From the NCBI RefSeq assembly GCF_018882155.1, contig NZ_JACVPA010000001.1, forward strand, positions 558,001-622,000: a DNA stretch of 64,000 nucleotides, given 5' to 3'. Below the pieces are notes generated by a model that was not told the origin of the DNA, did not search any database, and saw only the letters and a program-made list of their open reading frames with translations. Made by a program: the position numbers and the translations under genes. Shown piece after piece: positions 61,759 through 64,000 of the stretch (positions within the stretch are counted from its first letter, which is position 1; every line of letters starts with the position of its first letter). Origin of the DNA: Polynucleobacter nymphae (GTDB lineage: Bacteria; Pseudomonadota; Gammaproteobacteria; Burkholderiales; Burkholderiaceae).

Positions 61759-62556
61759 TTATGTTCCAAGCAGGCTTAATTCTTCAGCAGTAAATCCAGC
61801 TTGTTTACGAGCCTCTATGTTGAATGGACCTCTTAATATAGGAGCGCAGTATTGTCTTGCTAACTCTTTGTACGTTGCAATCGGAGATAAGTTCTTCTTG
61901 GCACATAAAAAATTAAACCATTGATTACCAATCAGAACGTGCCCTACTTCATCCCTGAGAATAATTTCCAATATTTCAACGACTTGTTGATCTTTAATTT
62001 GCTTAAAACGATCTCGAATGGCTGGAACAGCATCTAAACCTCTCGCCTCCATGGTCCGAGGGACTAGAGCCATTCTGGCAATCACCGCATCTGTTGTTCT
62101 CTCAACCATTTCCCATAGACTGTTGTGGGCCGGGAAATCACCGTAGGTAACGCCAACAGATTGCAGATGACTCTCAATCAAACTGAAATGGTAAGCCTCT
62201 TCTTTAGCAACCTTTAACCAATCCACATAATATTGGGCAGGCATATTAGCAAATCGCCAAATTGCATCAAGCGCAAGATTCATTGCATTAAATTCAATAT
62301 GCGCAAGTGAGTGGAGCAGAGAGAGCCTGCCCTCAAGAGTATCCATTTTTCTTTTGGGAACAGTCAATGGCGGAACCAACACTGGCTTTGATGGACGCCC
62401 AGGAAGAATAAGTCCTTGTGAACTTAAATCAGCAGAAACATCTAGATCAATACATTGACGATGGTAATCATCAAACAATTGCTGCACCCGCTCAACCTTA
62501 ATTTTCGGAAGAGTGATTGCTAATAGTTCAAGGGCGGTTTGACGTAACTCAGGCAT
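61759..62556 (-). CDS. DUF455 ferritin-like protein
   Basis: A 265-residue protein with a four-helix ferritin-like core. The pattern LLHSLAHIEFNAMNLALDAIWRF, EEAYHFSLIESHLQSVG and LRDEVGHVLIGNQWF supplies the Glu and His residues for a di-iron site, as in MiaE-like tRNA hydroxylases. The DUF455 family itself has no proven reaction. It is the last chromosomal gene before the island edge; the guaA 3' end lies 22 bases upstream of its start. Confidence 0.85.
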   Translation of the reverse strand: MPELRQTALELLAITLPKIKVERVQQLFDDYHRQCIDLDVSADLSSQGLILPGRPSKPVLVPPLTVPKRKMDTLEGRLSLLHSLAHIEFNAMNLALDAIWRFANMPAQYYVDWLKVAKEEAYHFSLIESHLQSVGVTYGDFPAHNSLWEMVERTTDAVIARMALVPRTMEARGLDAVPAIRDRFKQIKDQQVVEILEIILRDEVGHVLIGNQWFNFLCAKKNLSPIATYKELARQYCAPILRGPFNIEARKQAGFTAEELSLLGT

Positions 62557-62577
62557 CTAGGGTGAAAACTAAAAGTG

Positions 62578-62600
62578 TTATTCCCACTCAATCGTTGCAT
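62578..62600 (-). other. Remnant 3' end of guaA, probable attachment site at a genomic-island edge
   Basis: On the minus strand the bases read the codons for A-T-I-E-W-E and a stop, exactly the conserved C-terminus of GMP synthase, but the frame upstream (FFTY and beyond) is unrelated. No other part of guaA is in the window. The 3' end of guaA is a known integration target for tyrosine-recombinase islands, which leave such a duplicated gene end at one border. The duplicated core is about 21 bases long. Confidence 0.65.
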
Positions 62601-62650
62601 AGGTAAAAAACTCGATATTTAAGGGTCTTACAGCACACCAAATCATCTGT

Positions 62651-62673
62651 GTGTAAGTTTTGCGTGACTTTTT
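62651..62673 (+). repeat. Imperfect direct repeat, copy 1
   Basis: A 23-base unit starting GTGTAAG and continuing TTTTGCGTGACTTTTT. It equals the unit at 63590 at 19 of 23 positions, in the same orientation. It lies next to the guaA remnant and before the methyltransferase gene. Confidence 0.4.
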
Positions 62674-62780
62674 TATTCGTTTTTGTAGTAGCATAGCCTT
62701 ACGTAACCTATTGTGCTTATTAGATTTTACATGTTTATGGTTACGCATTGCACTACTAAACGGAAAACAATGAGAGAGCA

Positions 62781-63419
62781 ATGAACAGCTCAACATATAA
62801 CTTCACTAACAGCTGGTTTGAAAGCGATGCAAAAGGAGTGTGGGATTTCCTAATTCCGCAAATAAACCCAACTAAAATACTAGAGGTTGGCTCTTACGAA
62901 GGAGCCAGTACTTGCTACCTCATTGAAAAACTTGCGGCTTCGAAAGAAATAGAAATTCATTGTATCGATACCTGGGAAGGTGGAGTAGAGCATAAAAAAG
63001 GGGGTGTTGCTGAAGTGGATATGTCTGATGTTGAAAAGCGATTTCACCACAATACTAAAATGGCGATCAGCAAAGTTGAAAACACTGTTGAGCTTATGCT
63101 TCACAAAGGATTTAGTGATGTAGCATTATCAAAGTTAATTACTGACGGCAAGCAAGGATATTTCGATTTTATCTACGTTGATGGTTCGCACCAAGCAACC
63201 GACGTTTTATGTGACGCACTTCTTGGTTTTAGATTATTAAAGAATAATGGGGTGATAGCTTTTGACGATTATTTGTGGCAAGAAGAACTAGCGTATGGGA
63301 CTGACCCAATACGTTGCCCAAAAACAGCTATTGATGCCTTTACTAATATTTATTGCAGAAAGATTAGAATTATTAGAGCACCACTCTATCAGCTATACGT
63401 TCAAAAAATCAGTGATTAA
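62781..63419 (+). CDS. SAM-dependent methyltransferase (Methyltransf_24-like), island gene
   Basis: A 212-residue Rossmann-fold methyltransferase: motif I ILEVGSYEGASTCYLIEKL, an acidic IHCIDTWEGG strand end, YFDFIYVDGSHQATDVLCDA and GVIAFDDYLWQEELAYG. This matches class I methyltransferases of the type-24 group, often found in polysaccharide or natural-product clusters. GAGAG lies shortly before the ATG. Base composition is clearly more AT-rich than in the chromosome to the left, consistent with recent transfer. Substrate unknown. Confidence 0.8.
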   Translation: MNSSTYNFTNSWFESDAKGVWDFLIPQINPTKILEVGSYEGASTCYLIEKLAASKEIEIHCIDTWEGGVEHKKGGVAEVDMSDVEKRFHHNTKMAISKVENTVELMLHKGFSDVALSKLITDGKQGYFDFIYVDGSHQATDVLCDALLGFRLLKNNGVIAFDDYLWQEELAYGTDPIRCPKTAIDAFTNIYCRKIRIIRAPLYQLYVQKISD

Positions 63420-63552
63420 ACCAACTCAACCGCAGCTTTAATTATTGCGGGACGTAAATCAATGTAATTCTGTGAAGTCGTCATATTGCTTTGTCCAGCT
63501 AATGCCATTAGCGCCCTCATTCCCACTCCATAAATAGCCTGTATAAAAAATC
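63416..63552 (-). pseudogene. C-terminal remnant of a tyrosine recombinase (integrase)
   Basis: In the 290-base gap the minus strand reads YGVGMRALMALAGQSN, then MTTSQNYIDLRPAIIKAAVELV in two parts and a stop. This is the typical end of phage/island integrases, with the tyrosine nucleophile in the NYIDL context and the AVEL tail; the usual GH of the preceding motif is GQ. The frame closes with a TGA about 40 residues upstream, so the catalytic Arg-His-Arg part is missing. The stop overlaps the end of the methyltransferase gene. Confidence 0.7.
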
Positions 63553-63589
63553 AATAAAATCAAGTACTTACAAGTAATAATTTAGAGTT

Positions 63590-63612
63590 GTGTAACATTT
63601 GCGTAACATTTT
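63590..63612 (+). repeat. Imperfect direct repeat, copy 2
   Basis: A 23-base unit starting GTGTAAC and continuing ATTTGCGTAACATTTT, matching copy 1 at 19 of 23 positions. It also holds an inner repeat, GTAACATTT twice. A partial third copy (GTGTAAGTT) begins at 63684. In an AT-rich region such similarity needs care. Confidence 0.4.
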
Positions 63613-63709
63613 GCATACTTAAGAATTCTTATTAATTTTTGTGAGTGTTAGTGTACATAGGAAAAATATAGAAGTTACACGATGTGTAAGTTAAACAGAC
63701 AGTTTTTCT

Positions 63710-64000
63710 TTACTCTAAAAGTGAGTCTGCGTCTTTAAGTTGCTCTAAACATATATTGTAGTACTCCTTACTAAGCTCGCTACCGATATATCTTCTCTTT
63801 AATTTTTTACTAACAATAGCTGTAGTTCCAGTGCCTAAAAAAGGATCATAAATAACATCACCTTTTTTAGTAAAGTTTTCAAGTATCGTTTTAATCAGTT
63901 CTTGTGGAAAAGTAGCACCATGATTTTGTACCCCCTTCTTCCTTTCTCTTTTAATTTCCCATACATCATCCAATGTACCCCTCTTAAATGTAGCCGTTCT
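63710..64000 (-). CDS. DNA methyltransferase, C-terminal part (truncated by window edge)
   Basis: The minus-strand frame is open to the window end, so the N-terminus is outside. The visible 97 residues include HGATFPQELIKTILENFTKK, then VIYDPFLGTGTTAIVSKKL with the SAM-binding FxGxG motif and RRYIGSELSKEYYNICLEQL. Having motif I at the C-terminus is typical of beta-class N6-adenine or N4-cytosine DNA methyltransferases, where the catalytic DPPY motif comes first. It is strongly AT-rich and probably belongs to a restriction-modification or defence module carried by the island. Confidence 0.85.
   Translation of the reverse strand, partial: RTATFKRGTLDDVWEIKRERKKGVQNHGATFPQELIKTILENFTKKGDVIYDPFLGTGTTAIVSKKLKRRYIGSELSKEYYNICLEQLKDADSLLE

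What the first reader, a model, noticed from the sequence alone, without database searches (positions are those of the whole stretch)
62557..64000. Edge of a genomic island integrated at the 3' end of guaA
The last six codons and stop of GMP synthase stand alone at 62578-62600 on minus, followed by AT-rich foreign-looking genes. This is the scar left when an island enters guaA and restores it on the other side. The island should continue to the right of this window and end at an intact guaA.
Basis: partly seen in the sequence, partly recalled or inferred. Interest (0 to 1): 0.62.

Follow-up and report, generated by a model that had tools for sequence, protein, structure and literature searches.

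The report
Double guaA genomic island, restriction-modification cargo
A freshwater bacterium carries a small mobile stretch of DNA, inserted at the very end of an essential gene and carrying what looks like an anti-virus restriction system; it sits against the cut-off end of a second, related element, and relatives of it are found in several bacterial genera.

Summary
A 20-base end of guaA at 62579-62598 recurs, 19 of 20, 8,578 bases to the right at the end of an intact 545-codon guaA. In 41 of 76 genomes of the genus (Polynucleobacter) guaA lies 22-55 bases from the DUF455 gene; in 28, ours included, 0.4-62 kb intervenes.

The island is composite. A third att core (GAGTGGGA, minus strand) lies at 63521-63528, and DNA homology to a related complete element in another genome stops there. 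So a 7.64-kb element (integrase next to guaA, second small recombinase, DUF6641, HUH-like protein, MvaI/BcnI-type restriction-modification pair) abuts the 0.94-kb left end of a second element, cut inside its small recombinase gene at a core-like sequence.

All 16 carriers among 186 congeneric genomes have this integrase about 160 bases from the guaA stop. It also occurs in Limnohabitans, a Hydrogenophaga MAG and other MAGs. Backbone is conserved; cargo is swapped, recognisably restriction-modification in 8 of 12 complete elements.

guaA islands with this core are known (GIsul2, ICERspD18B, Song 2012), so this is a new variant of a known kind. Integrase action, HUH function and route of transfer are inferred.

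The parts
61759..62556 (-).
62579..62598 (.). outer attL: displaced 3' end of guaA, 20-base direct repeat (TATTCCCACTCAATCGTTGC) of the intact guaA end at C9:629157-629176; core TCCCACTC at 62582-62589 (GAGTGGGA on the minus strand)
62599..62718 (.). left arm of the outer (remnant) element; 77% identical to the left arm of the guaA element in genome G115 (z 16.4 against 100 shuffles), 49-60% to the 11 other arms compared
62781..63419 (+). SAM-dependent methyltransferase gene (Methyltransf_24, 66.6 bits over a cut-off of 26.3), cargo of the outer remnant
63419..63538 (-). C-terminal remnant (about 40 codons) of a small tyrosine recombinase (Int2 type), 81% identical over 37 residues to Int2 of G115, 43% to the Int2 of the inner element
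63521..63528 (.). middle att core (GAGTGGGA on the minus strand) = left end of the complete inner element, fused inside the Int2 remnant
63520..63689 (.). left end of the inner element with two GTTACRCA arm-type sites; 85% identical over 171 columns to the left end of G725's element and 78% over 148 to Limnohabitans lacus; homology to both ends one base past the core
63710..64000 (-). DNA methyltransferase of the type II restriction-modification pair (N6_N4_Mtase, 267 aa; runs on beyond the window to C9:622513). Further right, outside the window: MvaI/BcnI-type endonuclease, p126, p188, Int2, p114, HUH-like p185, DUF6641, proline-rich protein, Int1 (419 aa), intact guaA from C9:629156

Best explanation
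The feature is the left edge of a composite, site-specifically integrated genomic island at the 3' end of guaA. A 419-aa tyrosine recombinase (Int1), encoded at the island's right end 160 bases from the guaA stop, recombines the 8-base core GAGTGGGA in guaA with the same core in the circular element, using GTTACACA-like arm sites on both sides. The element supplies the last base of the final codon and a new stop (GAG TAG for GAA TAA), so GuaA stays whole. The complete inner element (63521 to C9:629167, 7.64 kb core to core) carries a backbone (Int1, proline-rich protein, DUF6641, HUH-like p185, small recombinase Int2, p188, p126) and a cargo slot that holds an MvaI/BcnI-type restriction-modification pair. 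To its left stands the end of an older related element (0.94 kb: methyltransferase gene and the last 40 codons of its Int2). It was cut at a core-like GGAGTGGGA in its own int2 gene, most simply by Int1 recombining there, which removed the older element's integrase half. SHOWN: repeats, empty sites, the changed stop codon, the third core, the fusion point, association of Int1 with guaA, backbone conservation with cargo exchange, movement between lineages. INFERRED: that Int1 performs the crossover, the order of events in the fusion, arm-site use, DUF6641/HUH/Int2 roles, restriction activity, and the vehicle of transfer (no conjugation or capsid gene recognised with confidence).
For: Direct repeat and intact guaA. 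Empty site: of 121 congeneric genomes (ours included) 93 had matches to both flanks, 92 were compared, 76 had both on one contig; 41 of 76 have 22-55 bases between the genes, 28 have 0.4-62 kb in the same orientation, one (G017) shows 236 bases owing to a partial DUF455 match, 6 are rearranged. Stop exchange: guaA ends GAG plus TAG or TGA in 12 of 13 Int1 elements (9 TAG, 3 TGA; G058 has GAA TAG), but GAA plus stop in 19 of 19 empty sites tabulated. Int1 was found in 16 of 186 congeneric genomes and lies beside guaA in 16 of 16 (the gene is broken in G109). A public scan gave 8 loci, 8 of 8 beside guaA, at least two of them genomes already counted (G734, G087). Inner boundary: blastn homology to G725 and to Limnohabitans ends one base past the middle core; left arms agree. 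Outer remnant matches the G115 element in arm and Int2. Transfer: G725 Int1 96.7% against GuaA 84.5% (residues 101-545) identical to ours; Limnohabitans Int1 92.9% (residues 1-241) against GuaA 74.3%. Cargo exchange. Arm-type sites: 38 on one strand in 3,510 bases of ends of 13 elements against 67 in 225,624 strand-bases inside (motif chosen by eye beforehand).
Against: No excision, circular form or enzyme activity was observed. DUF6641 has no solved fold match. The p185 model is poor (pLDDT 42) and the HUH assignment rests on motifs plus one sub-threshold Pfam match to a relative; a plain alignment of p185 with the L049 protein did not line up the motifs, and the proteins of L049, L115 and L120 have HYN or HFN in place of HxH. 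Four of the 12 complete elements (G016, G058, G087, G076) showed no such protein. G058 carries Int1 but its guaA ends GAA TAG. The blastn match to Latsch14-2 stops 15 bases short of the middle core. Other integrases use the same site: nine guaA-DUF455 insertions fetched from genomes without an Int1 hit hold no close Int1, the best 28% in G071. A weak PHROGs match of p188 to a head-closure family (E 0.029) was taken as chance. The event order behind the fused Int2 remnant cannot be read from one genome.
Confidence: 0.92

Rival explanations
1. One single island from 62582 to guaA; the core at 63521 is a chance GAGTGGGA inside a decayed recombinase gene.
For: Int2 genes encode G-V-G-x-R or similar, and G090's int2 has GAGTGGGC, 7 of 8 core bases, so a chance core there is easy.
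Against: The 120 bases on the element side of that core are 83% identical to the attL arm of G725 and 75-76% to those of Latsch14-2 and Limnohabitans, where they form the element's end; blastn homology to G725 and Limnohabitans stops at the core. The outer arm instead matches G115.
Confidence: 0.08
2. Decayed prophage or phage satellite rather than an autonomous integrative element.
For: Small size, integrase at one end and no transfer genes fit a satellite (inference).
Against: No confident capsid, packaging or lysis match among the 10 island ORFs scanned (the proline-rich ORF was scanned with PADLOC only). Int1 (E 1e-10) and p185 (E 0.01) have no match in 50,697 phage records, and pattern-based scans of viral contigs confirmed none.
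Confidence: 0.12
3. Mobilizable element: the HUH-like p185 nicks the excised circle for rolling-circle replication or for transfer through a helper's conjugation pore.
For: In the slot beside DUF6641, 8 of 12 complete elements have a 182-211 aa protein with a [LV]-T motif, I-E-G, HxH and YxxK in order; G749's copy matches REP_ORF2-G2P (E 0.0016, 19.1 bits, below the 27.8 cut-off).
Against: Low-confidence fold; no PDB sequence match beyond chance; not found in the other 4 of 12; HxN variants in relatives; no origin identified.
Confidence: 0.4

Closest known systems
GIsul2 (Shigella flexneri and others; PMC9376610, abstract and passages seen)
   Same: Inserted in the 3' end of guaA at GAGTGGGA; three att sites (attL, attLR, attR) with an inner element and an outer unit, as here; secondary sites of reduced specificity were reported.
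   Different: GIsul2 carries alpA, resG, stbC, replication, transfer-related, arsenic and CR2-sul2 genes; none of these was recognised here. Int1 has no match at E 1e-10 in 72,556 plasmid records, although GIsul2 occurs on plasmids according to that paper; the two integrases were not compared directly.
guaA-associated genomic islands (Song et al. 2012, not read; cited through PMC7775301, passages seen)
   Same: Same target, same 8-base consensus in the direct repeats.
   Different: Those islands frequently have P4-type integrases with alpA beside them; no AlpA family was found among the 10 ORFs scanned here, and DUF6641 and a second small recombinase are part of the backbone instead.
ICERspD18B of Rheinheimera (PMC7775301, passages seen)
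   Same: Direct repeat ACAATNGAGTGGGAATNNTT at the guaA 3' end.
   Different: A 28.5-kb conjugative element with relaxase and type IV secretion; neither was recognised in ours.
Gamma-mobile-trio islands (recalled; only a search listing was seen)
   Same: Recombinase-marked mobile islands that carry defence cargo (recalled).
   Different: Int1 has no GmtY or GmtZ match; Int2 scores 31 bits against a GmtY cut-off of 340 and 17.6 against 600 for GmtZ.

Membership tests
guaA-associated genomic islands | insertion at the 3' end of guaA with the gene restored | tested here: met
guaA-associated genomic islands | direct repeats containing GAGTGGGA | tested here: met
guaA-associated genomic islands | integrase gene next to guaA | tested here: met
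guaA-associated genomic islands | alpA beside a P4-type integrase (reported as frequent, not as required) | tested here: not met
   No AlpA family in the Pfam, PHROGs or NCBIfam scans of 10 island ORFs; whether Int1 is P4-type was not tested
GIsul2 family | alpA/resG/stbC/transfer-gene backbone | tested here: not met
   none recognised among 10 ORFs
GIsul2 family | integrase related to GIsul2 Int | tested here: inconclusive
   no plasmid match at E 1e-10; no direct comparison made
integrative conjugative element | relaxase and type IV secretion genes | tested here: not met
   inner element only 7.64 kb
Gamma-mobile-trio | GmtY and GmtZ recombinases (GmtX not tested) | tested here: not met
type II restriction-modification system | adjacent restriction enzyme and DNA methyltransferase genes | tested here: met
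   MvaI_BcnI 134.9 bits (cut-off 25) and N6_N4_Mtase 123.7 bits (cut-off 26.7), neighbouring genes
type II restriction-modification system | restriction and modification activity | not testable with these tools
   needs a bench test
HUH endonuclease (p185) | HUH and YxxK motifs in order | tested here: met
HUH endonuclease (p185) | family-level sequence match or HUH fold | tested here: inconclusive
   no Pfam replication family for p185 itself; REP_ORF2-G2P below cut-off for a relative; model pLDDT 42

The most novel reading that the evidence does not exclude
A so far unnamed family of small integrative elements, marked by DUF6641 plus a catalytic-domain-only tyrosine recombinase (Int2), often with an HUH-like protein, spreads through freshwater betaproteobacteria. 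The guaA branch swaps whole restriction-modification cassettes in a fixed slot. An incoming element can disarm a resident one by recombining at a core-like sequence inside the resident's int2 gene, whose G-V-G-x-R codons resemble the att core.
Probability: 0.4. Interest if true: 0.62.

Novelty: new variant of a known kind. Interest (0 to 1): 0.45.

Why it matters
Polynucleobacter is reported as very abundant in freshwater (abstract seen). This site gives a natural series (empty, single, composite and decayed states) of how restriction systems are exchanged as cassettes in one slot of a small element. It also gives a candidate case of competition between elements for one attachment site, with an exact recombination scar. 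DUF6641 had no paper in the library searched, so it gains a genomic context.

Tried and rejected
Single-island reading of the edge: rejected because the left arm beside the 63521 core belongs to a G725-type end. Phage, plasmid or viral-contig origin: pattern-based scans with Int1 and p185 in viral contigs confirmed nothing; tblastn of both in phages and plasmids gave nothing at the set limits; at E 0.1 Int1 hit 34 plasmid records, the 10 shown at 22-25% identity. Gamma-mobile-trio membership: rejected. Structure of p185: single-sequence model too poor to search, so no fold search was made with it. DUF6641: model pLDDT 82, but no PDB fold match at E 0.001. PDB sequence search with the G749 HUH-like protein: one chance-level match, E 1.6. 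Methyltransferase 62781-63419 as a marker of the outer element: 3 of the other 185 genus genomes have a relative (best 51% with 7 stops); by coordinates none lies near guaA, one (G056) being on another contig than its guaA. HUH partner as a universal companion of DUF6641: not upheld, 2 of 16 fetched loci matched an HUH profile.

Papers: PMC9376610 abstract and passages; PMC7775301 passages; PMC5644125 passages, with no occurrence of guaA, GMP synthase or integrase in its main text; Song 2012 not read; Hoetzinger 2017 (AEM) not held. No paper in the library holds both 'guaA' and 'Polynucleobacter' or 'DUF6641'; nothing wider is claimed.

Full report
WHAT WAS CLAIMED AND CHECKED. The window is G000:C9:558001-622000. 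The tail (A T I E W E stop, minus strand) is at 62578-62598. A 20-base copy, 19 of 20 identical, lies 8,578 bases to the right, at C9:629157-629176, and is the end of the one GMP synthase match in this genome, 545 aa and intact. The region between is AT-rich.

EMPTY SITES. A 242-base query joining the two chromosomal flanks was searched in 121 congeneric genomes (ours included), and so was the DUF455 protein (114 and 99 genomes matched). Of 93 with both, 92 were compared; 76 had both on one contig. In 41 of 76 the two genes lie 22-55 bases apart; in 28 they are 0.4-62 kb apart in the same orientation (ours among them); one, G017, shows 236 bases because its DUF455 match is partial; in 6 the order or orientation differs. 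Gaps are approximate where the DUF455 match is partial. The site is thus empty in about half and often occupied in the rest. The genus is Polynucleobacter: G734 and G087, called same-genus by the tool, coincide in match coordinates or contig length with Polynucleobacter sp. Latsch14-2 and P. sinensis.

THE ATTACHMENT SITE. In ours the intact guaA ends GAG TGG GAG TAG, while the displaced tail ends in GAA TAA. Among 13 Int1 elements compared, guaA ends GAG TAG in 9, GAG TGA in 3 and GAA TAG in 1 (G058); among the loci tabulated, the 19 with an empty site all end GAA plus stop (spacing). The crossover thus lies within GAGTGGGA and the element supplies the last base of the final codon and the stop. 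GAGTGGGA is the consensus reported for guaA islands and for GIsul2 (PMC9376610, PMC7775301). Both ends carry GTTACACA-like sites, 38 on one strand in 3,510 bases of end sequence of 13 elements against 67 in 225,624 strand-bases of interior (the motif was chosen by inspection, so the enrichment is descriptive).

THE ELEMENT. From guaA leftwards: Int1, 419 aa, tyrosine recombinase; proline-rich protein; DUF6641 (52 bits, cut-off 27); p185; a small membrane protein of 114 aa; Int2, 221 aa, with the catalytic domain only; p188; p126; MvaI/BcnI-type endonuclease; N6_N4 DNA methyltransferase. No relaxase, secretion, capsid or packaging family was recognised with confidence in the 10 ORFs scanned with Pfam, PHROGs and NCBIfam; the proline-rich ORF was scanned with PADLOC only, and p188 had a weak PHROGs match to a head-closure family (E 0.029), taken as chance. 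An Int1 profile finds 16 carriers in 186 congeneric genomes, 16 of 16 with Int1 beside guaA (broken in G109). A public scan, limited to two peptide patterns, found 8 loci, 8 of 8 beside guaA, among them Limnohabitans lacus, a Hydrogenophaga MAG and a MAG labelled Hyphomicrobiales; at least two are genomes already counted. Int1 of G725 is 96.7% identical to ours although its GuaA is only 84.5% (residues 101-545); for Limnohabitans the figures are 92.9% (first 241 residues; the copy is cut short) and 74.3%. This points to transfer, not descent.

BACKBONE AND CARGO. Against G725, ours aligns at 94% over the first 3.5 kb, 90% over Int2, 88% over p126 and 85% over the left end, with non-matching DNA between; against Latsch14-2 at 80-88%. 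The restriction-modification genes fill one of the non-matching gaps. Of 12 elements with both ends found (the decayed Limnohabitans copy left out), 8 carry recognisable restriction-modification genes: ours (MvaI/BcnI type), Latsch14-2 (HindIII type), G725 (C5 methylase with a type II endonuclease), G749 and G076 (MmeI type), G016 and G087 (type III with a helicase), and G058 (helicase 93% identical to that of G016, neighbouring ORFs of similar size, not scanned itself). Not recognised: G247 (two ORFs, one with a weak methyltransferase match), G090 (a methyltransferase), G115 (one unknown gene); G079's cargo ORFs were not scanned.

THE ISLAND IS COMPOSITE. A third GAGTGGGA lies at 63521-63528. 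Its element-side flank is 83% identical (120 bases) to the left arm of G725 and 75-76% to those of Latsch14-2 and Limnohabitans, while the outer arm at 62599-62718 is 77% identical to that of G115 and 49-60% to the other 11. Blastn homology to G725 and Limnohabitans ends one base past the middle core; that to Latsch14-2 ends 15 bases before it. Beyond the core lie the last 40 codons of an Int2-type gene, 81% identical over 37 residues to Int2 of G115 and only 43% to the inner element's Int2, then the methyltransferase gene and the outer attL. G115 shows the same order: Int2 end, one opposed gene, attL. A profile search of the genome found no N-terminal part of this Int2; two other matches lie in longer recombinase frames. 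In Int2 genes the codons G-V-G-x-R come close to the core (G090: GGAGTGGGC). The simplest reading is that Int1 recombined at such a site, directly or after tandem insertion, and the resident element lost its integrase half. The three-att layout parallels GIsul2 with its outer CR2-sul2 unit, where the integrase was shown to move either part (PMC9376610).

p185. In the slot next to DUF6641, 8 of the 12 elements have a 182-211 aa protein with a [LV]-T motif, I-E-G, HxH and YxxK in order. One relative matches REP_ORF2-G2P at E 0.0016, below the cut-off. A single-sequence model was poor. Some related proteins have HFN or HYN instead of HxH (L115, L120; L049), and a plain pairwise alignment with the L049 protein did not line up the motifs. 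I hold HUH-type nicking as plausible but unproven.

A WIDER FAMILY. DUF6641 was found in 14 of 379 genomes of the order and in 0 of 14 control genomes. In 16 fetched loci (L124 is a further Int1-guaA element; three loci are cut by contig ends), Int2 lay in 9, none of them beside an Int1-guaA site. So DUF6641 with Int2 marks more than the guaA branch.

JUDGEMENT. Ordinary in kind: an integrase-driven island at a known hotspot. New in detail: a distinct integrase branch and backbone, a restriction cassette slot, a composite with an exact fusion scar inside the neighbour's recombinase gene. Interest 0.45.

Noticed in passing
L110, L111, L112, L113, L116, L117, L118, L120, L122: DUF6641 and a small Int2-type recombinase lie within about 3 kb of each other at sites other than the Int1-guaA site, in this genus and three other genera of the order; G016 alone has three extra DUF6641 copies. 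They may be a wider family of integrative elements.
   Followed up: partly
L068 (G725) and L072 (G115): About 5 kb of further DNA lies between the element's attL core and the DUF455 gene, suggesting stacked insertions at guaA here too.
   Followed up: no
L076 (G107), guaA-oriented positions 1864 and 3013: Two extra guaA-end cores, one with a longer guaA-like tail, lie between guaA and DUF455: another stacked array without a close Int1.
   Followed up: no
L045:10001-13158 (Limnohabitans lacus): Relative of the element with Int1 cut at about residue 241 next to ORFs that look like an IS3-type transposase (by eye), with most of the backbone missing.
   Followed up: partly
L119 (G656): DUF6641 lies about 4.5 kb from the 3' end of a guaA gene without a recognised Int1; possibly a different guaA integrase.
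   Followed up: no
G049, G012, G073, G007: Gaps of 56-62 kb between guaA and DUF455 without an Int1 match at E 1e-60: much larger insertions at the same place.
   Followed up: no
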